A stretch of 64,000 bases of DNA. Source: Crossiella sp. CA-258035 (lineage in GTDB: Bacteria > Actinomycetota > Actinomycetes > Mycobacteriales > Pseudonocardiaceae). Location: NCBI RefSeq assembly GCF_030064675.1, contig NZ_CP116413.1, positions 1,830,001 to 1,894,000 on the forward strand, given 5' to 3'. How positions within the stretch are numbered: the first letter of the stretch is position 1; each line of letters begins with the position of its first letter. Positions 12,275-24,526 of the stretch are shown here, piece after piece. Under the pieces are notes generated by a model, which saw nothing but the letters and a program-made list of their open reading frames with translations, did no database searches and was not told the origin of the DNA. The translations under genes were made by a program, and so were the position numbers.

Positions 12275-12324
12275 ACGGCCGAGGGCCGGGCGGTCTTGGT
12301 GACCGGCCCGGCCCTCGGCCGTTG
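12275..12324. terminator. Strong terminator-like hairpin, original glnA terminator (left copy)
   Basis: An 18-bp stem AACGGCCGAGGGCCGGGC (12275-12292) pairs with GCCCGGCCCTCGGCCGTT (12307-12324). Nearly the same sequence (about 47 of 51 bases) recurs at 22812-22861. It lies 17 bp beyond the TGA that the last codons of glnA would have at attL, so it is probably the pre-integration terminator of glnA. It also serves the convergent sirtuin gene. Confidence 0.85.
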
Positions 12325-12338
12325 TTCAGCTACTGCGG

Positions 12339-12353
12339 ATCACACGTCGTAGG
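12339..12353. other. attL core of the integrative element
   Basis: GATCACACGTCGTAG, identical to 22955-22969 at the glnA 3' end. Read on the minus strand it is CTACGACGTGTGATC, which spells the last three sense codons of GlnA (Tyr-Asp-Val) and TGA. The left copy is followed inward by unrelated sequence and outward by a glnA-type terminator, as expected of the displaced end of a target gene. The exact crossover cannot be placed within the 15 bp. Confidence 0.7.
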
Positions 12354-12460
12354 AGTGCCACAGGCCGTCCCTGACCAGCGCCGCTTGCATCTGCACCCGT
12401 TCTGACCTGCTGGTTCTCTGTCGATGTTGGTCGTCGTTGGTTGACCTTCGTCGGCCTCAG

Positions 12461-12930: not shown

Positions 12931-13551
12931 CTAGTGTGCGAATACGTCCGGCCAGCGGCGGACCTGGAGATCCACATGCGTTGGCAGAAAGGAGCAGCAC
13001 TTCGCAAATAAATCACTCAGGCCTGATTTGTTAAGCCTGGAAGACAGAGATTTGTATAGTGGAATTAAGTACTCGACGTCAGCGGCTGCGTAAGCAAGCT
13101 GTTCGGCCGACAATTCGACCGCTTGCCAATTGCTAAGCCTCTGATCTTTGCTGATTTGAACGCCGAGAATTCTGTCAAGTAACGACTGAAGGCTGTGTGT
13201 CGACTTGTCGCCATATGGATCGAGAAGTCTGGAGGCTACCTTTGTGCACGCGATATTGGCAGGCTTCACGCCCCACTTGCTTACCATGAAGCGAAGATCG
13301 AAAGGCGCATGGTGAAAGATCTTCTTCGTGGTGGGGTCGGCGATCAGTTGGCATAGGTTGGATGGGGAATTGACTCCGATTCGGGCGACGAAAGTTCCCG
13401 TCATGGGTGAATGGATTTGGCATGTTGCAATCTGATCGGTCGCCCAGTCGAGTCCGGTTGTTTCAATATCGCAAGCGACCAATCCAGCGCTGGTGAGTGC
13501 TCTAAGCTGCCATTCGTTGATATCTACCTCTACAATTTCAGGATCAGGCAT
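12931..13551 (-). CDS. RNase D-like 3'-5' exonuclease (DEDD superfamily)
   Basis: 206 residues, essentially only the catalytic domain; host RNase D is about twice as long with HRDC domains. All four acidic positions are visible: D28 and E30 in ACDIETTG, D85 in HHAPFDLRF, and Y154/D158 in YAAADVEYL, the DEDDy arrangement. The segment HSLQSLLDRILGVQISKDQRLSNW is typical of RNase D. The ATG overlaps the stop of the upstream membrane gene by 8 bp and has AGGAGAGAG before it, so the two are translationally coupled. Its base composition is much poorer in G+C than the flanks. Likely an effector or RNA-processing enzyme in the cargo; the target is unknown. Confidence 0.85.
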   Translation of the reverse strand: MPDPEIVEVDINEWQLRALTSAGLVACDIETTGLDWATDQIATCQIHSPMTGTFVARIGVNSPSNLCQLIADPTTKKIFHHAPFDLRFMVSKWGVKPANIACTKVASRLLDPYGDKSTHSLQSLLDRILGVQISKDQRLSNWQAVELSAEQLAYAAADVEYLIPLYKSLSSRLNKSGLSDLFAKCCSFLPTHVDLQVRRWPDVFAH

Positions 13552-14359
13552 CTCTCTCCTCATTCTTAGGCAAGGGAAATACCTTCCTGCTCTGCTGTCG
13601 GATAGATTCCAGGTCATTTCGGACGAAACTGTACAGGCTGCCGGGGCCTTGGCAAACGATTGTCGGTACGCTTCCCCTTTCTTGATGGTGTGAGTAAAGT
13701 GTAACAACCGCTGTATTGTCAAACCTGTATGCACTGTAGAGCAATGTTCCGGGACGGTAGTAGATAGATATGTTAGCGCTACCCTGCATCGAAAGACGTT
13801 CGAAGTCTTCCTTGGCTTCGACTATTAGATCGACGGTTCGCTCGGGAGTTTTCATAATGCGCGCAGCGAACTGCTTGACCGTTTCTGGGTCCTCGGCGTC
13901 AGGAAGAAATACCCTGATCTGGCAGTCCTTCTTCTTGGCGATCGCACGCAAATTTGACAAATTGCTATTGCGCCAAGTTTGACCGTAAGCGAAAAATATA
14001 TCAAGTTCGCGTGCTCGAGAAAAGAGATTATCCCAGTCGGCGTCTTTTAGGTACTCGGTACCCGCGCGTATGATTCCGGACCTTTCTAGATTGGTCGCAG
14101 AGCCTGTGATTTCGATGACTTCGCGAGCGAAGGAACGTTTGCTGGCCAGTTCCCAAAGTACAACTAGTGCCATGCCAGTGATAAGGGCGCTCCCTAGGTT
14201 ATTCACAACATTTTGAGCCCCGGGATTACTCTTGATTGCATCGAGTGTGCCTGCTATCCAAAGAAGAAGGAGTCCGACCGCTGCGGCGCCAACGGCGATT
14301 AGCACGGCCCTGTAGGTGCTTAGGGCTCGACGTGGACGTTCGCTTTCCAGGGATCCCAA
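13544..14359 (-). CDS. Two-helix membrane protein with a cytoplasmic sensor-like domain
   Basis: 271 residues. Membrane segments lie at about 18-39 (AVLIAVGAAAVGLLLLWIAG) and 52-73 (VNNLGSALITGMALVVLWEL), followed by a soluble domain. That domain contains IRVFLPDAEDPET, ISIYYRPGTLLYSAYRFDN and VPTIVCQGPGSLYSFVRNDLESI. These line up by eye, in the same order and spacing, with IRLLFGDPASPEV, VEIRFHRTTLYNSIFRFDH and APALHLRSQPTQGLFDIYAESFETV of the XRE regulator at 14960-15832. The start is a TTG with AAAGGGG upstream. Low G+C, coupled to the exonuclease gene. A membrane-tethered sensor or effector is inferred. Confidence 0.75.
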   Translation of the reverse strand: MGSLESERPRRALSTYRAVLIAVGAAAVGLLLLWIAGTLDAIKSNPGAQNVVNNLGSALITGMALVVLWELASKRSFAREVIEITGSATNLERSGIIRAGTEYLKDADWDNLFSRARELDIFFAYGQTWRNSNLSNLRAIAKKKDCQIRVFLPDAEDPETVKQFAARIMKTPERTVDLIVEAKEDFERLSMQGSANISIYYRPGTLLYSAYRFDNTAVVTLYSHHQERGSVPTIVCQGPGSLYSFVRNDLESIRQQSRKVFPLPKNEERDA

Positions 14360-14478
14360 TATTTGCCCCTTTGTTTTTTGCTAAGTCTACGAGATTAGCT
14401 CAATTGCGAGTTTGATGTCTAACTGTGTAAATGTTTCGCGAATTAGTGTCCCACGTCAGGGGGTGGTAGTGCTGATTT

Positions 14479-14949
14479 CTATGTGTAGTAAGGAGAGTCT
14501 CGATTGGAGAAACCGTGTTCAATCCGAAGTCGAATTGAAGGATGTATGTTAAGGCTGCCTACTTCTTCTCTGGTGACCCAGCAAACTTCCTTGGATTCGC
14601 TACTTGTGCGTAGAGTTCCACCGACAGGATTGGCGCGAAAGCAGATGGAGAACTCCTGTCGGACCTCTCCGTCACTGTAGGCGACAATATGATTGGGGTT
14701 TGAATAAATTCCGACTAGCTCTACGATGTCTACGATAATCCCTGTCTCTTCATCGAGTTCGCGAATTGTGGCTTCGGTGAGAGTCTCCCCGAGTTCGAGT
14801 TGTCCACCAGGGATGGAGTAGAAATCATTGTCGGTGCGGCGGATCATCAGGAGTCGTCCAGATTCGTCTTGGACGAAGGCGCTGACGGCGACGGCGATGC
14901 TGTTGGCCTTCGGGGCATTGGGGTCGTGGAAGTAGTCGACGCGTGCCAC
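14479..14949 (-). CDS. NUDIX hydrolase
   Basis: 156 residues. It has a perfect Nudix box from G49 to I71 (G-x5-E-x7-REL-x-EE-x-G-I), after IPG and before a typical beta sandwich (VGIYSNPNHIVAYSDGEVRQEFSICF). It would hydrolyse a nucleoside diphosphate linked to another group. The GTG start follows GAAGGGGAACCA and lies 10 bp after the XRE gene's stop, so they form an operon. The AICE pSAM2 encodes a NUDIX protein, Pif, that blocks redundant transfer into element-bearing cells; a similar role is possible here but not shown. Confidence 0.9.
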   Translation of the reverse strand: MARVDYFHDPNAPKANSIAVAVSAFVQDESGRLLMIRRTDNDFYSIPGGQLELGETLTEATIRELDEETGIIVDIVELVGIYSNPNHIVAYSDGEVRQEFSICFRANPVGGTLRTSSESKEVCWVTREEVGSLNIHPSIRLRIEHGFSNRDSPYYT

Positions 14950-14959
14950 TGGTTCCCCT

Positions 14960-15832
14960 TCAGAAGTCTGCGGGCGTGGACAGGTTCCAGACGGTCTCAA
15001 AGCTCTCGGCATAGATGTCGAACAGTCCCTGTGTGGGCTGGCTCCGCAGGTGCAGCGCTGGGGCGTGTGCTCCCTGGAACCCATACACATGGGTGTTGAC
15101 GATCATCTCGTGGTCGAAACGGAAGATCGAGTTGTAGAGCGTGGTCCGGTGGAACCGGATCTCCACGCCGTCCACTCCTTGCAGCGGCCGGTAGAAGGCC
15201 AGCGCATTGCGGATGCGGCCTCCAAGGGTCTCTGCGCCCAGGCCCTCCTCGTCGCTGCGAAGTGCGACCTCCGGGCTGGCCGGGTCGCCGAACAACAGGC
15301 GGATCTTGGCGCCCTTGGCGGCCTTGGTTGCCAGGCTGCGTACGAAGGTGGGGCGCTCGGTGAGGAACAGCGCGGCGTGGACCAGGACCTCTACGTGCCC
15401 GGTCGCGTTCGCGGTCAGCCGGTCCCACAGCTCGGACGGGATGGCGTTGCGGTGCGGGTAGGTGGAGACGATCTCACCGACCTCGGTGGCCGCGGGGCGG
15501 ATCACCGGTGCGGTGCCCGCGCCAGCGGCGGGGAGGGCGGCCGGCGGGGCCTGCGGGATGGGTGGTGCGGTGTCCGGGTCGTGGGGTGACAGCAGGGCTT
15601 CGATGCCGTGGCCGGGCAGCATCGCTTCGAGAATGCGGCAGTGGTCCGGATAGGGCAGGCCGATCAGCTCGCCGGAGAGCCAGCGGTAGAACTGGGCCTT
15701 GCTCGGGTACTTGCCGCGCAGGTCCGGGTCGACCTTCTTGGCCACCCGGTCGTACTCCTTGCAGAAGGCGCGGTAGCCCTGCAAGTGGCGCTGGCGGAGC
15801 AGGTACTTCAGCAGTGTGGGCTGCGGCGTCAT
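14960..15832 (-). CDS. XRE-like HTH regulator with a C-terminal sensor domain (DUF5919-like)
   Basis: 290 residues. The N-terminal ~70 residues are a helix-turn-helix of the type seen in Streptomyces regulators (GKYPSKAQFYRWLSGELIGLPYPDHCRILEAM). A Pro/Ala linker (88-110) follows, then a C-terminal domain (LWDRLTANATGHVEVLVHAALFLTERPTFV, IRLLFGDPASPEV, FRFDHEMIVNTHVYG, FDIYAESFETVW) that resembles DUF5919 as I recall it. The ATG has GGGAGG six bases upstream. It heads the operon with NUDIX. Four GACGAGA repeats lie just upstream. Probably an autoregulator of the element. Confidence 0.85.
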   Translation of the reverse strand: MTPQPTLLKYLLRQRHLQGYRAFCKEYDRVAKKVDPDLRGKYPSKAQFYRWLSGELIGLPYPDHCRILEAMLPGHGIEALLSPHDPDTAPPIPQAPPAALPAAGAGTAPVIRPAATEVGEIVSTYPHRNAIPSELWDRLTANATGHVEVLVHAALFLTERPTFVRSLATKAAKGAKIRLLFGDPASPEVALRSDEEGLGAETLGGRIRNALAFYRPLQGVDGVEIRFHRTTLYNSIFRFDHEMIVNTHVYGFQGAHAPALHLRSQPTQGLFDIYAESFETVWNLSTPADF

Positions 15833-17185: not shown

Positions 17186-17620
17186 ATGACTGTACGGCGT
17201 CCGGGAGACTTCCCGGCAGATGGGGTCCCTCGAAAAGGGCAACGGCGGTGCTCGACCTGCGGGAAGTTCGCCCGCATGTTGCCTGGAGATGACCAGTGCG
17301 GGGTGTGCGAGGGCTGGCTCCCGCTGGACTTCTCCGACCTGCTGAACAGTGGTGTGGCGCGGCGGGTTCGCCGGTCCAAGGCCGAGGTCTGGTCCGGGCT
17401 GCTGTCCCGGTTGCAGACGACCGGGATCTACCCGGTGCGGCTCGATGGCGCACCCGTGCAGCGGATGAAGCTCACCGAGGCTCAGGCTGGCGGACTGGCT
17501 TGCCTGGGGTGCAACCAGGCGTGTGGGATCGGCAAGGCCGCGTTCCGGCCTGCTGGGCACGTGGTGGGCGGGTCGCAGGTCTTCCGCTGTATCGCCTGCA
17601 TCGAAGGCGGTGAGCGGTGA
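17186..17620 (+). CDS. Zinc-ribbon protein of the AICE
   Basis: 144 residues with two Cys clusters: RRCSTCGKFARMLPGDDQCGVCEGW (CxxC-x14-CxxC) near 20-45 and CLGCNQACGIGKAAF..FRCIACIEGG near the C-terminus. Both look like zinc ribbons. It directly precedes the FtsK-like gene with a TGATG overlap, so it is co-translated with the transfer gene. A DNA-binding accessory of transfer or replication is the simplest guess; no direct evidence. Confidence 0.75.
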   Translation: MTVRRPGDFPADGVPRKGQRRCSTCGKFARMLPGDDQCGVCEGWLPLDFSDLLNSGVARRVRRSKAEVWSGLLSRLQTTGIYPVRLDGAPVQRMKLTEAQAGGLACLGCNQACGIGKAAFRPAGHVVGGSQVFRCIACIEGGER

Positions 17621-19119
17621 TGGCCGCCTTCTCCCGCAAGCCCTTGGCTGAACCAGCCGCGTTGGAGATCACCCGGCCTCGGCTGCCCTGGTGGACGCTG
17701 CTGCCGGGCTGGGCAAAGCTCGCGCTGCTGCCCGTGGCGCTGGTGTGGTCGGCTGGCTGGCTCGTTGTGCAGGCGGCACGGATCGTCGGGCGCTACCCGG
17801 TGCTGGTGTTCGGCGCGCTGGTGGTCTGGGCTGGTTACCGGCACCTCGGCGGGTGGTACCTCGGGCTGTTCGTCGCCCTGGCCCTCATCGTGCTCGGCTG
17901 GTGGGCCTGGGGACATCGGCCCTCGTTCGAGCGCTACTGCTGGTGTGAGGTCCGGACCGAGTGGCGGCGTTGGTCGGTCTACGGGTGGCAATGGCGTTCG
18001 GTGATGCGGCTGGCTGATCTCACGAAGTCGGTGCGGGGTGCGGAGTACCGGCCCAAGCTCGGCCGCGTCCGGGCTGATGGGTGGCGGGATCGGGTTCGGG
18101 TGCGGATGGTCAAGGGGCAGGCTCCGGAGCAGTGGGAGCTGCGGGCCTCCGGCCTGGCGCATGCCTTCGGGGCGACCTCCTGCCGGGTGCGGGTGCGCAA
18201 GCCCGGCCGGCTGGAACTGGACCTGGTGCACCGTGACCCGCTGGTCCGGCCCATCCCGGTGCCGGAACTTGCGGCCACGGATTCCGCGGTTGACCTCAAG
18301 CGCCTTGTTGTCGGGCGGACGGAGAGCGGGCGGGCGTTGACGCTGCGGCTGCTGGGCAACCACCTGCTGATCGTGGGTTCGACCGGGGCGGGCAAGGGCT
18401 CGGTCATGTGGTCGCTGCTCTGGGCCGTGGCCCCGGCGATCCGGGCCGGGCTGGTGCGCTTGGTGGGCATCGACCCCAAGGGCGGGATGGAGCTGGGGCA
18501 GGCTCCGGAGCTGTTCCACCGGCTCGCCTACACCAACGACCTGGAAGCCGTGGAACTCCTGGAAGGGCTGGCGGCGGAGCTGAAGGACCGGGCACAGCGG
18601 TACCGGGGCCAGCTGCGGCGCTGGAAGCCCGGCAACGGGGAACCGTTCACCCTGCTCGTGGTCGACGAACTGGCCGACGTGATCGCCTACCAAACTGACA
18701 AAGCGCTGCGGGAACGTGCGGCGCGGGCGGTGCAGACCATCGCCTCCCAGGGCCGCGCACCCGGCTTCGCCGTCCTCGGCCTCGTCCAGGACCCGCGGAA
18801 GGAAGTCGTCTCCTTCCGGCACCTGTTCGGCTCCAAGGTCGCCTTGCGGCTGGATGAAGCCGCCCAGGTCGACATGGTCCTGGGCGAGGGCGTCCGGCAA
18901 CGCGGGGCCGCTGCTCACGAGATCAGCGAGGGCACCCCGGGTGTGGCGTGGGTGAAGGAGGACGGGCGGCGGGAACCGGTGCGCGCCAGGGCCTTCCACG
19001 TCACCGATGCCGATCTACACCGGCTGGTCGACTACGTCACCGGACGCGACGCGGTGCACGCGGAAGTTCTGCCCTTCCCCGGCAGCGGCTACGACGTGGA
19101 CGGGGAGGTGGCGGCGTGA
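17620..19119 (+). CDS. FtsK/SpoIIIE-type DNA translocase, AICE transfer protein (TraSA/TraB-like)
   Basis: 499 residues. Two to three membrane helices lie at about 25-95 (LLPVALVWSAGWLVVQAARIVG, LGLFVALALIVLGWWAWG). The motor domain has Walker A GSTGAGKGS near 255 and Walker B LLVVDELADV near 345, then TIASQGRAPGFAVLGLVQDP. Actinomycete plasmids and AICEs transfer double-stranded DNA between mycelia with one such hexameric pump. It starts at ATG 17620 (GTG 17617 also possible) and overlaps Rep by four bases. The small C-terminal gamma-like region cannot be resolved by eye. Confidence 0.9.
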   Translation: MAAFSRKPLAEPAALEITRPRLPWWTLLPGWAKLALLPVALVWSAGWLVVQAARIVGRYPVLVFGALVVWAGYRHLGGWYLGLFVALALIVLGWWAWGHRPSFERYCWCEVRTEWRRWSVYGWQWRSVMRLADLTKSVRGAEYRPKLGRVRADGWRDRVRVRMVKGQAPEQWELRASGLAHAFGATSCRVRVRKPGRLELDLVHRDPLVRPIPVPELAATDSAVDLKRLVVGRTESGRALTLRLLGNHLLIVGSTGAGKGSVMWSLLWAVAPAIRAGLVRLVGIDPKGGMELGQAPELFHRLAYTNDLEAVELLEGLAAELKDRAQRYRGQLRRWKPGNGEPFTLLVVDELADVIAYQTDKALRERAARAVQTIASQGRAPGFAVLGLVQDPRKEVVSFRHLFGSKVALRLDEAAQVDMVLGEGVRQRGAAAHEISEGTPGVAWVKEDGRREPVRARAFHVTDADLHRLVDYVTGRDAVHAEVLPFPGSGYDVDGEVAA

Positions 19120-20753
19120 GCGAGCACGTGACCCGAGCGGAGCGGATGCGTCAGCCCCTCGCGCTGGATGTGGTGCGCTCGCTGGCGGAGACCAACGGCG
19201 TGTGCGTCCGGCCGCTGGCGCAACGGCGACTGGACTACGCCACCGGCCGGGTGGATGTGCTGCCGGTGGCCTGCGGCTCCACCGTGGCCTCGGTCTGCGC
19301 CCCGTGTGCGGACAAGGCCCGCAAGCTGCGGATGGCCCAGTGCCGCGAAGGCTGGCACCTGGCCGACGAACCCGACTTCAGTCCGAACGCTCCGACTGTG
19401 GACCAGGCCGCGCTGACCGAACTGCGGGCGACCCTGTGGGCGGACTACCAGGCCGCTCGGGCCGAGGGCGATGAGAGCGGGATGGAGGAACTGCGAGAAG
19501 CCGTCGCGGCCGTGGATGCGGAGCTGCGGGACGGTGGTGTGCGGGGCAAGCTCCCCGCGCTGGACCCACCCCTGTCCAAGCCGGTCAAGCGCTCGACCCG
19601 GCGTAAGCAGGACGTGCCGGAGTTGCCCCGCCGGCGGGTCTCCCGGCACACCGTGGGCCGGGAGTTCGCCGGATGGTTCCGCCCGTCGATGTTCCTCACC
19701 CTGACCCTGGACTCCTACGGGCGGGTGCGGGAGGACGGCACCCCCGTGGACCCCGACAGCTACGACTACCGGCGTGCCGCGCGGGACGCGGTGCACTTCG
19801 CCGCGCTCCTGGACCGGTGGGTGCAGAACCTGCGGCGCGCGGTGGGCTACGACGTGCAGTACTTCTCCACCGTCGAACCCCAACGCAGGCTGGCGCCCCA
19901 CTGGCACGCGGCAATCCGGGGTGCGATCCCGCATGACCTGCTGCGACTGGTCACCGCCGGGACCTATCACCAGGTCTGGTGGCCGAAGCATGACGAGCTG
20001 GTCTACCCCGGGGAGACGGCGCCGGTGTGGTGCGACCGAGCCAAGGGCTTCGTTGACCCGACCACCCGCCAAGTCCTGCCGACCTGGGAGGAAGCCCTCC
20101 CCGGCCCGGACGCATCGGACCCGGCGCATGTGGTGCGGTTCGGGAGGCAGATGCACTCCAAGGGCATCCTCGGCGGGACCGAGGAAGCCGGGCGGCACAT
20201 CGGCTACCTGACCAAGTACCTCACCAAGTCCATCAGCGAGTGCCACGAAGAGGCCACCGAACGCCAGCGGCGGCACGCCGACCGCCTGCATGCTGAACTG
20301 GCGATCACCCCGTGCTCGCCGCGCTGCGCGGTCTGGCTGCTCTACGGCATCCAACCCGCCGGGGCGCGGATGAACCTCACGCCGGGGCGCTGCAAGGGCA
20401 AGGCCCACCGGCGGTCCACGCGCGGGCTGCCGGGGCGGCGGGTGCTGGTGTCGCGGAAGTGGTCGGGCAAGTCCCTAGGCGATCACCGCCACGACCGGCA
20501 GCAGTTCGTTCGGCAACTGCTGCTGGACATCGGTGTCACGCCGGAGACGGACCGGGACACCAGTCAGGTGGTCTGGCAGAAGGTCGCCCCTGGTGACCCG
20601 GACGTGCCTCCCCGGGCGCACCTGCTTATGCACTCGGTGGCGGAGCGGCTGAGGTGGAAGGCCCAGTACTCGCTGGCGCAGTTGGCGGCCGGGGAGTCGC
20701 CGCAGCGCCGGATCTTTCGGCAACTCGACCGGCAGCGGCATAGGGGGCGGTGA
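19116..20753 (+). CDS. HUH-type replication initiator (RepSA-like)
   Basis: 545 residues. It has the three HUH rolling-circle motifs in order: FLTLTLDSYG near 190 (motif I), the metal-binding HWH in PHWHAAIRG near 261 (motif II), and the nicking Tyr region YLTKYLTKS near 363 (motif III). An N-terminal zinc-type cluster CAPCADKARKLRMAQC is also seen. It would nick the excised element for replication. The GTG overlaps the FtsK stop (GTGA), and its own stop overlaps Xis by one base. The origin itself was not identified. Confidence 0.9.
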   Translation: MSEHVTRAERMRQPLALDVVRSLAETNGVCVRPLAQRRLDYATGRVDVLPVACGSTVASVCAPCADKARKLRMAQCREGWHLADEPDFSPNAPTVDQAALTELRATLWADYQAARAEGDESGMEELREAVAAVDAELRDGGVRGKLPALDPPLSKPVKRSTRRKQDVPELPRRRVSRHTVGREFAGWFRPSMFLTLTLDSYGRVREDGTPVDPDSYDYRRAARDAVHFAALLDRWVQNLRRAVGYDVQYFSTVEPQRRLAPHWHAAIRGAIPHDLLRLVTAGTYHQVWWPKHDELVYPGETAPVWCDRAKGFVDPTTRQVLPTWEEALPGPDASDPAHVVRFGRQMHSKGILGGTEEAGRHIGYLTKYLTKSISECHEEATERQRRHADRLHAELAITPCSPRCAVWLLYGIQPAGARMNLTPGRCKGKAHRRSTRGLPGRRVLVSRKWSGKSLGDHRHDRQQFVRQLLLDIGVTPETDRDTSQVVWQKVAPGDPDVPPRAHLLMHSVAERLRWKAQYSLAQLAAGESPQRRIFRQLDRQRHRGR

Positions 20754-20983: not shown

Positions 20984-22222
20984 ATGGGGCACATTCAGGA
21001 CCGCTGGTTCAAGGTCGAGAAGGACGCGGTGACCGGTAAGCCGGTGCTTGATGCCAAGGGCAAGCCGGTGAAGGTGAAGACCGATCTGCACGGCGTCGGC
21101 CTGCGGTACAAGGTGCGCTACCTCGACCCGGACGGGAACGAGCGCAGCAAGACCTTCCCGAACGGGAAACTCGCACTGGCACAGGCGTTTCTGCACCAGG
21201 TCGAGAACGACAAGCACAAGGGGACGTACCTCGATCCGGACAAGGGGCGGGTGCTGTTCCGGAAGCTCGGTGAGGACTGGCTGAACTCGCGGACCTTCGA
21301 TGAGTCGAGCCGGGAGGGGACGGAGTTCCGGCTCAAGCTGCATGTGTTCCCGTACTTGGGGGACAAGGAGATCCGGGCGATCCTGCCGTCGCACATCCAG
21401 GAGTGGGACCGGGAGCTTCAGAAGAAGGGGCTTGCCGAGACGTACCGGCGGACGATCTTCGCCAACGTTTCGGCAATCTTCACGGCCGCGATCGACGATG
21501 AGCGGATCACGAAGAACCCGTGCAACGCGAAGTCGGTGACGAAGCCGCGGGGCGAGTACCCGAAGGTGGTGCCGTGGCCGGAGCAGCGGGTGCACGCGGT
21601 GCGGGCCAAGCTCGGGGAGCGGTACCGGGTCATGATCGACGCTGGGGCTGGGTGCGGGCTCCGGCAGGGTGAGGTGTTCGGGCTCTCGCCGACTGACGTC
21701 ACCGAGGATGGCCAGAAGCTGAGGGTCGAGCGGCAGATCAAGATCGTCCGGGGACGCCTGGTGTTCGCGCTGCCCAAGCACCGGAAGGTCCGGGAGGTGC
21801 CGCTATCCGCGACCGGGAATGCCGCGATCAAGGCGCACAGCGAGAAGTTCGAGCCACTGCCGGTGACGCTGCCGTGGGAGGAACCGGACGGCAAGCTGGT
21901 GACGGTGAACCTGCTGCTGTACACGCGGGAGCGGAAGCCGATCTACCGGCACTCGTTCAACCACCACGTGTGGAAGCCAGCTCTGCGGGAAGCCGGCGTG
22001 GAGAACCCGCAGCGGGCTGACGGGTTTCACGCTCTGCGGCACTTCTTCGCCTCGCTGCTGCTCGATGACGGGATCAGTATCCGGGCACTGGCCGAGTTCC
22101 TCGGGCATGCTGACCCGGCGTTCACACTGCGGGTGTACACGCACCTGATGCCATCCAGCCATGAGCGCACTCGTGGTGCCGTTGATCGTGTATTCAGCAG
22201 CACTAAGAGGAAAGCGGCTTGA
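20984..22222 (+). CDS. int: Tyrosine site-specific integrase
   Basis: 412 residues. The catalytic set is complete: first Arg in GCGLRQGEVFGL near 226, HALRH near 349-353, the second His in LGHADPAF near 374, and the nucleophile in RVYTHLM near 384. An N-terminal arm-binding region (GLRYKVRYLDPDGNERSKTF) and a SAM-like core-binding domain precede them. It is the last plus-strand gene, 733 bp from attR, and is presumed to recombine the 15-bp core in glnA. Confidence 0.95.
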   Translation: MGHIQDRWFKVEKDAVTGKPVLDAKGKPVKVKTDLHGVGLRYKVRYLDPDGNERSKTFPNGKLALAQAFLHQVENDKHKGTYLDPDKGRVLFRKLGEDWLNSRTFDESSREGTEFRLKLHVFPYLGDKEIRAILPSHIQEWDRELQKKGLAETYRRTIFANVSAIFTAAIDDERITKNPCNAKSVTKPRGEYPKVVPWPEQRVHAVRAKLGERYRVMIDAGAGCGLRQGEVFGLSPTDVTEDGQKLRVERQIKIVRGRLVFALPKHRKVREVPLSATGNAAIKAHSEKFEPLPVTLPWEEPDGKLVTVNLLLYTRERKPIYRHSFNHHVWKPALREAGVENPQRADGFHALRHFFASLLLDDGISIRALAEFLGHADPAFTLRVYTHLMPSSHERTRGAVDRVFSSTKRKAA

Positions 22223-22236
22223 CCAGAGCGCTGGCG

Positions 22237-22761
22237 TTACTCGCCATCGGCGAGGTCACGCGCCAGCGTGGCAGTGAGGTCGTCGAGACTGGATTCGATC
22301 ATCGGCCAGGAGATTTGCTCCGGTGGCTCCTGCTTCAAGGCGACGTAGCCGGTCATCATGTCGAGCTTCTCGACGTGGGTGAGAACCGATGGTGCGGTCT
22401 GAGGCGACAGCAAGCGCACGCGTCCCAGAAGGAGATCCATCTGTCGACGGTCGATGTCACCGGCGGACTTCGCATTGACCCAGTGACTCCACAGTTTCGG
22501 AGATGGGGATCGCCCGATGATCATGTAGTGCTGGAACTTCCGAAGGTCGCGCTGCCATTTGTCGACGGTCGCAAGTACGTCGGCGTACAGATCTCGCTTC
22601 TGGTCAGTGAATCTGTGGCGGTCTTCCCGCACCCACTGGGTTTCGCGGAGCTTGAACTCTCGCCGTCCTTGCATCAGTTGACCGACCACAACGCCGATGA
22701 GCGCGATCAGAGCACCGATCGCAGATGCACCCAACGGGATGAGCAGGTTGATGTTGGTCAT
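22237..22761 (-). CDS. Single-pass membrane protein of the AICE right end
   Basis: 174 residues. The ATG opens MTNINLLIPLGASAIGALIALIGVVVGQLMQGRREFKLRE, an N-terminal membrane helix followed by a basic stretch and a long helical cytoplasmic domain (QKRDLYADVLATVDKWQRDLRKFQ). This architecture is common in AICE and phage cargo of unknown function. It is convergent with int (14-bp gap) and transcribed towards the element interior, apart from the backbone operon; possibly an exclusion or defence protein, which is inference. Confidence 0.75.
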   Translation of the reverse strand: MTNINLLIPLGASAIGALIALIGVVVGQLMQGRREFKLRETQWVREDRHRFTDQKRDLYADVLATVDKWQRDLRKFQHYMIIGRSPSPKLWSHWVNAKSAGDIDRRQMDLLLGRVRLLSPQTAPSVLTHVEKLDMMTGYVALKQEPPEQISWPMIESSLDDLTATLARDLADGE

Positions 22762-22811
22762 GCAGAGACTGTGAACCTTCAGTGTCACCGAGCGGTGCCG
22801 ACAGGGACACA

Positions 22812-22861
22812 AACGGCCGAGGGCCGGGTGGTCGTGGTGACCAACCCGGCCCTCGGCCGTT
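22812..22861. terminator. Second copy of the glnA-type terminator, carried by the element
   Basis: AACGGCCGAGGGCCGGG (22812-22828) pairs with its complement ending at 22861. It matches 12275-12324 at about 47 of 51 bases. It lies 96-145 bp downstream of the glnA stop, so the element appears to restore a terminator to its target gene, as well as the codons. Confidence 0.85.
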
Positions 22862-22891
22862 GGAGCTGCTGGCGTCTCAGGTCCCAATCAC

Positions 22892-22954: not shown

Positions 22955-22969
22955 GATCACACGTCGTAG
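22955..22969. other. attR core, overlapping the last codons of glnA
   Basis: GATCACACGTCGTAG covers the last three glnA sense codons (Tyr-Asp-Val), the stop codon and two bases beyond it. Identical to attL at 12339-12353. Integration here leaves the glnA reading frame intact because the shared core supplies the C-terminus. Confidence 0.7.
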
Positions 22970-24381
22970 TAGAGCGCGAACTCGTACGGGTGCGGGCGGA
23001 GGCGGATCGGGTCGATCTCGTTCTCGCGCTTGTAGGAGATCCAGGTCTCGATGACGTCTGGGGTGAACACGCCGCCCTCGAGGAGGAAGTCGTGGTCGCG
23101 CTCCAGGTTGTCCAGGACCTCGCCCAGGGAGCCGGGGACCTGGGGGACGTTCTTGGCTTCCTCGGGGGGGAGCTCGTAGAGGTCCTTGTCGATCGGGGCC
23201 GGGGGCTCGATCTTGTTCTTGATGCCGTCCAGGCCGGCCATCAGCATGGCGGCGAAGGCCAGGTACGGGTTGCCGGAGGAGTCCGGGCAGCGGAACTCGA
23301 CGCGCTTGGCCTTGGGGTTGTTGCCGGTGATCGGGATGCGGATGCACGCCGAGCGGTTGCGGGAGCTGTAGACCAGGTTCACCGGGGCCTCGTAGCCCGG
23401 CACCAGGCGGTGGTAGGAGTTCACCGTCGGGTTGGTGAAGGCCAGCAGGCTCGGCGCGTGGTGCAGCAGGCCGCCGATGTAGTGCCGCGCGGTGTCGGAC
23501 AGGCCGCCGTAGCCGGACTCGTCGTGGAAGAGCGGGGAGCCTTCCTTCCACAGCGACTGGTGGGCGTGCATGCCCGAGCCGTTGTCACCGTAGAGCGGCT
23601 TCGGCATGAAGGTGGCGGTCTTGCCGTTGGCCCACGCGGTGTTCTTGACGATGTACTTGAACAGCTGCAGGTCGTCCGCGGCGTGCAGCAGGGTGTTGAA
23701 CTTGTAGTTGATCTCGGCCTGGCCCGCGGTGCCGACCTCGTGGTGGGCGCGCTCGACGGTGAAGCCGGAGTCGATCAGGTTCAGTGTGATCTTGTCGCGC
23801 AGGTCGGCGAAGTGGTCGGTCGGGGAGACCGGGAAGTAGCCGCCCTTGAACTTGACCTTGTAGCCCTTGTTGCCGCCCTCTTCGTCGGCGCCGGTGTTCC
23901 ACCAGCCCGCGACCGAATCGACCTCGTGGAAGGAGGCGTTCTCCCGGTTCTCGAAGCGCACCGAGTCGAAGAGGTAGAACTCCGCCTCCGCCCCGAAGAA
24001 GCAGGCGTCGGCGATGCCGGACTCGGTGATGTACTGCTCGGCCTTGCGCGCGATGTTGCGCGGGTCGCGGCTGTACGGCTCCCGGGTCAGCGGGTCGTGC
24101 ACGAAGAAGTTGATGATGAGGGTCTTCTCGATCCGGAACGGGTCGAGCCGCGCGGTGGCCACATCGGGCAGCAGCAGCATGTCGGACTCGTGGATCGACT
24201 GGAAACCGCGCACCGAGGAGCCGTCGAAGGCGAGGCCCTCCTCGAACGTGTCGCGCTCGAACGAGGCGGCAGGCACGGTGAAGTGCTGCATGATGCCGGG
24301 CAGGTCGCAGAACCGCACGTCAATGAACTTCACGCCGTTGTCGGCGATGAAGCTCAGGACCTCGTCGGGATTGGTGAACAC
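22957..24381 (-). CDS. glnA: Glutamine synthetase type I (GlnA1)
   Basis: 474 residues, exactly the family length when started at GTG 24381 ([11 protein letters not shown]), which has AAGGAG about 10 bases upstream. It makes glutamine from glutamate, ammonia and ATP as a dodecamer. Visible motifs: [13 protein letters not shown], the beta-Asp loop DGSSVRGF, catalytic EAEFY, the ATP-site [27 protein letters not shown], and the adenylylation site [10 protein letters not shown] (Tyr near 402), the target of GlnE. The C-terminal Tyr-Asp-Val-stop is the integration site of the AICE. A GlnR-like box lies upstream. Confidence 0.98.
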
Positions 24382-24488
24382 CCTCGTTGGCTCCTTCGTT
24401 GTTGTGCCGGCAGGGCCGGCGTCTTCGCACGCCGTCAGGACAACCGGCGCAGAGCCGGCCCTGTTGCGAGTGACCGTATGACCATGGT

Positions 24489-24526
24489 GTTGCTCGGTCA
24501 TCACCCGAGTGTTTCACCGGTGTTAA
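24489..24526 (-). promoter_or_regulatory. GlnR-like tandem box upstream of glnA
   Basis: On the minus strand the region reads TTAAC-n6-GAAAC-n6-GTGAT-n6-GCAAC. The consensus I recall for actinobacterial GlnR is gTnAC-n6-GaAAC in tandem; spacing matches perfectly and most key bases agree. It is 108-145 bp upstream of the glnA start, where nitrogen control is expected, and 72 bp from the divergent RDD gene. Confidence 0.7.

What the first reader, a model, noticed from the sequence alone, without database searches (positions are those of the whole stretch)
12931..15832. AICE cargo with one apparent sensor domain in two versions, each paired with an enzyme
Seen: the C-terminal domain of the 2-TM protein (13544-14359) and of the HTH regulator (14960-15832) share an ordered set of motifs: IRVFLPDAEDPET / IRLLFGDPASPEV; ISIYYRPGTLLYSAYRFD / VEIRFHRTTLYNSIFRFD; and VPTIVCQGPGSLYSFVRNDLESI / APALHLRSQPTQGLFDIYAESFETV. 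Each gene is followed at once (8-bp overlap; 10-bp gap) by an enzyme: a stand-alone DEDD RNase D-like exonuclease and a NUDIX hydrolase. Known: such sensor-effector pairs on mobile elements often form defence or element-exclusion systems. Inference: a membrane-gated exonuclease system and a transcription-gated nucleotide hydrolase sense the same kind of ligand. I know of no description of this pairing.
Basis: partly seen in the sequence, partly recalled or inferred. Interest (0 to 1): 0.85.

Follow-up and report, generated by a model that had tools for sequence, protein, structure and literature searches.

The report
Membrane PLD-like sensor with DNA dinuclease
A mobile element of a soil actinobacterium carries a two-gene unit, seen again in distant bacteria, that pairs a membrane protein bearing an enzyme-dead phospholipase-D-like domain with a nuclease that looks specialised for two-letter DNA fragments; the same kind of domain sits on the regulator next door, so the pair may watch for and erase the crumbs of degraded DNA.

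Summary
Four genes lie on the minus strand of a 10.6-kb AICE that a conspecific genome lacks. The C-terminal domains of the 2-TM protein and of the HTH regulator are homologous (BLASTP E 5e-4; profile-profile 97.7 %, E 2.5e-12). The regulator's is DUF5919. The 2-TM protein's models as a phospholipase-D fold without the HKD motif, like TrmB. The 'RNase D-like exonuclease' is an NrnC/diDNase-family dinuclease, so it should cut dinucleotides, not long nucleic acid. The 2-TM gene is followed at once by it in 6 of 8 homologues found (window included), one in a 36 % GC MAG, and the two proteins co-diverge. The regulator-NUDIX pair matches the known AICE xre-nud module; both pairs are neighbours only here. 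One 2-TM/dinuclease pair carries both published qPCR primers of the studied Nocardioides alkalitolerans diDNase, so the published 'HTH protein' operon partner is probably this membrane protein. Best mechanism (inferred): a dead-PLD membrane receptor whose ligand, a deoxydinucleotide or DNA end, is kept low by the dinuclease, as a defence or exclusion device. 'Membrane-gated exonuclease' and 'same ligand' are not shown.

The parts
12338..12358 (.). left att repeat of the AICE (21 nt, 19 of 21 identical to the right one)
   Evidence: the repeat finder D10; the conspecific genome G188 has one copy with the immediate left and right flanks side by side
22955..22975 (.). right att repeat of the AICE, at the 3' end of the minus-strand ORF 22957-24504 (reads as glutamine synthetase; recognised by eye, no family search)
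12931..13551 (-). DEDDy dinuclease of the NrnC/diDNase family, 206 aa; D28, E30, D85, Y154, D158 present
   Evidence: PF01612 E 2.3e-32; PDB: 'ancestor of diDNase' 9qrf E 2.6e-51, 9f7g 8.9e-50, diDNase 9f7d 4.2e-34, NrnC 7mpr 3.6e-30
13288..13314 (-). EXOII motif HHAPFDLRF (residues 80-88), the diDNase type HHAxFD(L/I)xF
   Evidence: motif definition from PMC11706625 section 20
13544..14359 (-). 2-TM protein with C-terminal PLD-like domain, 271 aa, TTG start; overlaps the dinuclease gene by 8 bp
14141..14308 (-). membrane-spanning region, residues about 18-73
   Evidence: hydropathy peaks at residues 18-36 and 51-73; helices 10-38 and 46-85 in the model, partly at low confidence
13574..14080 (-). 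PLD-like domain without HKD motif, residues about 94-262
14479..14949 (-). NUDIX hydrolase, 156 aa, GTG start 10 bp after the regulator's stop
   Evidence: PF00293 E 2.1e-20
14960..15832 (-). HTH regulator with C-terminal DUF5919 domain, 290 aa
14972..15340 (-). DUF5919 match of the regulator, residues 165-287
17617..19119 (+). FtsK/SpoIIIE-type transfer protein of the AICE
   Evidence: PF01580 E 5.7e-12
18948..20753 (+). RepSA replication initiator (longest ORF; the true start probably lies further in)
   Evidence: PF20199 E 5.6e-100
20984..22222 (+). tyrosine integrase of the AICE
   Evidence: PF00589 E 3.8e-18

Best explanation
Genes 13544-14359 and 12931-13551 form a mobile two-gene unit. 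SHOWN by computation: protein one has an N-terminal membrane region (two helices predicted here) and a C-terminal PLD-fold domain without the HKD residues; protein two belongs to the NrnC/diDNase dinuclease family; the genes touch (overlaps of 4 to 26 bp in five loci, gaps of 4 and 9 bp in two, start codons as assumed), recur as a pair in several actinobacterial families and in a 36 % GC MAG, and co-diverge. INFERRED: the dead PLD domain faces the cytoplasm and binds a short nucleic acid or nucleotide ligand, most simply a 5'-phosphorylated deoxydinucleotide or DNA end; ligand binding changes the membrane part (clustering, leak or anchoring); the dinuclease removes the ligand and so sets the threshold and resets the system. 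DNA crumbs made when phage, plasmid or host DNA is being destroyed would be the trigger, which makes the unit a defence or element-exclusion device carried by mobile elements. The neighbouring regulator-NUDIX pair uses the same domain family with a DNA-binding instead of a membrane output; it is an AICE module of its own, not part of this unit.
For: Shared domain: (control 95). Fold. HxK(x4)D occurs in 1 of 25 proteins and there outside the HKD position, as read by eye. Dinuclease; motif HHAxFD(L/I)xF in 7 of 7 paired enzymes. Pairing: of 8 2-TM genes found with 2-TM or sensor queries, 6 (window included) have the dinuclease immediately downstream; a seventh pair, L189, came from a dinuclease query. 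Distance matrices of the 7 pairs correlate at r 0.90; 4 of 5040 label permutations, the true one included, do as well. Mobility: the AICE is absent from conspecific G188; L084 is a provirus contig in IMG/VR; L033 lies beside an integrase fragment and a transposase, L010 beside what reads as a transposase (by eye). Defence neighbours: type I restriction genes at L009, a STAND ATPase at L189. Published: tested diDNases act on deoxydinucleotides and 41.9 % of the genes lie within 10 genes of defence systems (PMC11706625). The fold's relatives include 5'-phosphate ssDNA-binding PLD3/PLD4.
Against: No ligand, binding, activity or phenotype was or could be tested. The PLD fold also binds sugars (TrmB) and lipids, so a nucleotide ligand is a guess. 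By hydropathy only 6 of 9 members show two peaks; L032, L189 and the N-terminally cut L010 show one. The window enzyme ends in His206 where the diDNases of the paper have Tyr, so strict DNA specificity is not assured. 2 of 8 2-TM genes (L011, L012) have no dinuclease beside them (6 of 9 pair if the distant L037 is counted); of 14 dinucleases examined 6 sit with HIRAN-HipA genes and one phage-contig copy has neither partner, so each half can live without the other. The searched phage, plasmid and viral-contig collections gave no 2-TM relative except the one provirus. PADLOC has no match for the 2-TM protein. The gene pairs at L018 and L010 have no clear defence genes beside them: the UvrD-type helicase at L018 hits GajB and DRT models but reads as a repair helicase. 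The paper reports that the N. [quoted passage not shown]
Confidence: 0.38

Rival explanations
1. The dead PLD domain binds incoming DNA at the membrane and recruits the dinuclease, which completes degradation started by other nucleases: a clean-up or nucleotide-salvage station for phage or conjugative DNA, not a signalling device.
For: Membrane anchor; PLD fold with nuclease relatives such as NucT, Nuc and PLD3/4; restriction genes next to one locus; PMC11706625 suggests clean-up alongside defence.
Against: Actinomycetes with diDNases also have housekeeping Orn (PMC11706625 discussion); a dedicated membrane receptor is hard to explain; no interaction data.
Confidence: 0.22
2. Metabolic or regulatory cargo: the PLD-like domain senses a sugar or another metabolite as TrmB does, and the dinuclease is a fitness cargo without role in conflict.
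For: Among the closest fold matches are the TrmB sugar-binding domain and TrmBL2; related HTH-sensor genes sit beside an aldo-keto reductase and a 2'-5' RNA ligase-like gene.
Against: Association with mobile elements and the tight pairing with a DNA-dinucleotide enzyme.
Confidence: 0.17
3. Element exclusion: regulator-NUDIX (Pif-like) and 2-TM/dinuclease together keep a second AICE out.
For: Pif of pSAM2 is a NUDIX protein that gives conjugal immunity (PMC3218068 passages; NUDIX role also in PMC11706625); NUDIX follows the regulator in 12 of 18 genes in held genomes and 5 of 5 on viral contigs.
Against: The other 2-TM/dinuclease pairs have no regulator or NUDIX match within the stretches held, and of AICE genes only an integrase fragment at L033; the NUDIX was not compared with Pif itself.
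Confidence: 0.1
4. The two genes are neighbours by transfer history only and have no joint function.
For: Both halves exist alone (L011, L012; HIRAN-HipA loci; phage contig L085).
Against: Touching order conserved in 7 loci including a 36 % GC MAG; co-divergence.
Confidence: 0.08

Closest known systems
diDNase operons of Actinomycetes and Clostridia (Mortensen et al. 2025, PMC11706625)
   Same: Same nuclease family, same mobile and defence-rich settings, partner gene in operon; both published qPCR primers for the N. alkalitolerans diDNase match L032 exactly, and L032 carries the 2-TM gene just upstream.
   Different: The paper calls the operon partner an HTH protein, and its main text has no 'transmembrane', 'phospholipase' or 'PLD'; here it is a membrane protein with a dead PLD fold and no HTH match in 9 of 9 members. 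The window enzyme ends in His, not Tyr.
AICE xre-nud(-mdp) cluster and Pif of pSAM2 (PMC3218068)
   Same: HTH regulator together with a NUDIX gene in an AICE.
   Different: Homology of the regulator's DUF5919 domain with a membrane protein's domain was not met in the passages read; no sequence of that paper was compared.
TrmB / TrmBL2 archaeal regulators
   Different: HTH instead of a membrane region; sugar or DNA binding; no nuclease partner known to me; 6-9 % identity.
CBASS effectors with two TM helices plus a nucleotide-sensing domain (Cap14, Cap15; recalled, no call)
   Same: Order of parts: 2 TM, then a cytoplasmic sensor domain.
   Different: No nucleotide cyclase among the 11 AICE proteins scanned; the sensor fold differs.

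Membership tests
diDNase (NrnC-related deoxydinuclease) | EXOII motif HHAxFD(L/I)xF | tested here: met
   HHAPFDLRF at residues 80-88
diDNase (NrnC-related deoxydinuclease) | C-terminal tyrosine | tested here: not met
   Window and Lentzea enzymes end in His; 5 of 7 paired enzymes end in Tyr. So it is filed as a diDNase-like NrnC-family dinuclease. A published H81F/Y206H double mutant kept its DNA preference.
diDNase (NrnC-related deoxydinuclease) | about 200 aa with DEDDy residues | tested here: met
   206 aa; D28, E30, D85, Y154, D158 invariant in A5 (6 sequences)
diDNase (NrnC-related deoxydinuclease) | cleaves deoxydinucleotides only | not testable with these tools
   needs enzyme assay
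RNase D | RNase D equivalog score and full length | tested here: not met
   TIGR01388 73 bits against a cut-off of 298.95, profile positions 35-180 of 363; protein of 206 aa
PLD superfamily | PLD fold | tested here: met
PLD superfamily, active enzymes | HxK(x4)D motif in the domain | tested here: not met
   absent in P0001 and in 24 of 25 relatives tested; the one hit lies outside the HKD position, by eye
DUF5919 (PF19319) | score over the gathering cut-off | tested here: met
   regulator 33.6 bits, cut-off 23.5; the 2-TM protein itself has no Pfam match above cut-off
PLD fold for the DUF5919 regulator | structural match | tested here: inconclusive
AICE | RepSA, FtsK-type transfer gene, integrase, att repeats, empty site | tested here: met
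CBASS | nucleotide cyclase (CD-NTase) gene | tested here: not met
   none among the 11 AICE proteins scanned with PADLOC; other small ORFs of the element were not scanned
Pif conjugal immunity factor | blocks redundant transfer | not testable with these tools
   NUDIX domain only

The most novel reading that the evidence does not exclude
Linear deoxydinucleotides are a danger signal: a membrane effector with a dead phospholipase-D fold is gated by DNA breakdown crumbs, and a dedicated dinuclease is its off-switch; the same receptor fold is reused with HTH outputs and other ligand-handling enzymes (NUDIX, 2'-5' RNA ligase-like, aldo-keto reductase) across actinobacterial mobile elements.
Probability: 0.17. 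Interest if true: 0.92.

Novelty: new variant of a known kind. Interest (0 to 1): 0.6.

Why it matters
Why bacteria on mobile elements keep an enzyme that destroys only two-letter DNA is left open in the diDNase paper (PMC11706625, discussion). A conserved membrane partner with a receptor-like fold gives that question a concrete handle: test whether the partner binds the enzyme's substrate. It also probably corrects the nature of the published operon partner and links it by homology to the regulator of the recurrent AICE regulator-NUDIX module.

Tried and rejected
Rejected: (1) classical RNase D or long-substrate exonuclease: the closest solved relatives are dinucleases. (2) One four-gene system: none of the other 2-TM/dinuclease loci shows the regulator or NUDIX within the stretch held. 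(3) CBASS: no cyclase among the 11 proteins scanned. (4) An HTH in the 2-TM protein: no HTH match in 9 of 9 members at E 1.

Led nowhere: phages, plasmids and viral contigs for the 2-TM protein (one search returned only the known provirus); viral contigs for the regulator alone; BFVD search (one match under E 0.001, a PLD protein); structure of the regulator (too poor to decide); PHROGs for the 2-TM protein and regulator. A tree of 14 dinucleases puts 2-TM-linked and HIRAN-HipA-linked enzymes apart with one change, but that branch has 48/3 support only. Several genome searches drew overlapping samples, so their counts must not be added. L037, a distant protein (28 % identity, N-terminal hydrophobic stretch, no dinuclease match nearby), was left out of the 8 2-TM genes; with it the count is 6 of 9. 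Of the 68 and 26 viral loci, most are partial or below 35 % identity; I looked only at L084 and L085 (and L043, a DNA polymerase).
Full report
Anatomy. On the minus strand of an AICE lie a DUF5919 regulator, a NUDIX hydrolase, a 2-TM protein and a DEDDy nuclease. RepSA, an FtsK-type gene and an integrase follow on the plus strand. A 21-nt repeat (12338-12358 and 22955-22975) bounds the element. The conspecific genome G188 has one copy, with the immediate left flank (12316-12337) and the right flank (22976 on) side by side; further left, between window bases 12257 and 12315, G188 has about 780 bp of other sequence. So the element is about 10.6 kb and mobile. The 2-TM and nuclease genes have 51 % GC and the NUDIX 52 %, against 68 % for the regulator and 71 % for the window.

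Nuclease. With the alignment of six paired enzymes the best PDB matches are 9f7g (E 1.7e-74), 9qrf 'ancestor of diDNase' (1.2e-73), 9f7d diDNase (1.2e-52) and NrnC (3.7e-49); 'Ribonuclease D' 1yt3 is at 3.1e-15. 9F7G and 9F7D are among the deposits of PMC11706625. The diDNase EXOII motif is present in 7 of 7 paired enzymes; the C-terminal Tyr is present in 5 of 7 and is His in the window and in Lentzea. The paper took that Tyr as a selection criterion, so I call the window enzyme diDNase-like.

Pairing. With 2-TM or sensor queries (390 genomes of the family, 8 with a match; a genome-contig scan, 4 loci; 394 genomes of the class, 12 with a match) I found 8 2-TM genes, the window's included. The other matches are sensor relatives with other N-termini: 3 with HTH and 9 weak ones. 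Six of the 8 have the dinuclease directly downstream: window, L009 (Lentzea pudingi), L010 (Saccharopolyspora spinosa), L018 (MAG titled only 'bacterium', 36 % GC, so probably not an actinobacterium), L032, L033. L011 (Actinokineospora bangkokensis) and L012 do not. L037, more distant, has none either. L189 is a seventh pair, found with a dinuclease query. With start codons as assumed, the genes overlap by 8 (window), 14 (L009), 4 (L010), 4 (L032) and 26 bp (L033) or lie 4 (L018) and 9 bp (L189) apart. With dinuclease queries in whole genomes at E 1e-25 (394, 220, 149, 190 and 54 genomes, overlapping samples), 9 genomes other than the window's have such a gene: 4 with the 2-TM gene and 5 with HIRAN-HipA genes; a Nocardiopsis plasmid copy is also HIRAN-HipA, and a phage contig copy (L085) shows neither partner. 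Pairwise distances of the 7 pairs correlate at 0.90, reached by 4 of 5040 permutations, the identity included.

The published case. PMC11706625 (abstract and sections 17, 18, 20, 23, 27 and 28 read, passages elsewhere) reports that in 97 % of the analysed genomes (93 genes) diDNases lie in one of two clusters: about two thirds of these beside an 'HTH domain-containing protein', the rest with HipA and HIRAN genes. Both of its qPCR primers for the N. alkalitolerans diDNase match L032 exactly, inside the dinuclease gene, and the same sequence is a provirus contig in IMG/VR (L084), as the paper says of that gene. Just upstream is the 2-TM gene. As my sample has only 2-TM and HIRAN-HipA types (plus one phage copy with neither), the published HTH partner is probably this membrane protein; the supplement that would settle it was not open to me. 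Searches of the paper library for diDNase found one paper, for DUF5919 none, and wider term sets (listings only) showed no title on the 2-TM/PLD protein.

The regulator-NUDIX pair. NUDIX follows the regulator within about 100 bp in 12 of 18 such genes at 15 loci of held genomes and in 5 of 5 on viral contigs; no NUDIX match lies within the flanks of 21 other, mostly longer, DUF5919 loci (L044-L064). It matches the mdp-nud-xre cluster described for AICEs (PMC3218068, passages). Among the 2-TM/dinuclease loci it occurs only in the window. Other relatives of the sensor domain carry an HTH and are followed by an aldo-keto reductase (L013, L014) or a 2'-5' RNA ligase-like gene (L015).

Mechanism. 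A dinuclease is unlikely to be the main weapon against long DNA. The simplest reading of 'receptor-like dead fold in the membrane plus an enzyme that removes a two-letter DNA' is receptor plus ligand eraser. I hold this at 0.38, with recruitment/clean-up, metabolic cargo, exclusion and chance as rivals. The anatomy, homology and recurrence are firm, the second membrane helix less so (two hydropathy peaks in 6 of 9 members); ligand, membrane action and biological role are inferred.

Noticed in passing
L013:12600-14599 and L014:6892-9068: In two genomes an HTH-sensor relative overlaps an aldo-keto reductase gene by 4 bp, beside what reads as a radical-SAM, kinase and aminotransferase gene cluster (by eye).
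   Followed up: partly
L015:10391-11751: XRE-type HTH (by eye) fused to the sensor domain, followed by a 2'-5' RNA ligase-like protein (PF13563).
   Followed up: partly
window 22237-22887 (-): A 216-aa ORF with a hydrophobic stretch and no Pfam or PADLOC match at E 0.01 at the right end of the AICE: perhaps another unknown cargo gene.
   Followed up: partly
L044-L058: 15 genomes of one genus (g71) carry a DUF5919 protein in an open frame of 418-475 aa without NUDIX match in the flanks, as if a core gene of that genus.
   Followed up: no
L189:3273-6692: A STAND ATPase-TPR protein (PADLOC STAND_TPR, E 6.1e-79) lies next to a 2-TM/dinuclease pair.
   Followed up: partly
L034 and L035: Two regulator copies near each other, one with NUDIX and one without, in two genomes, near what reads as an HD-domain gene (by eye).
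   Followed up: no
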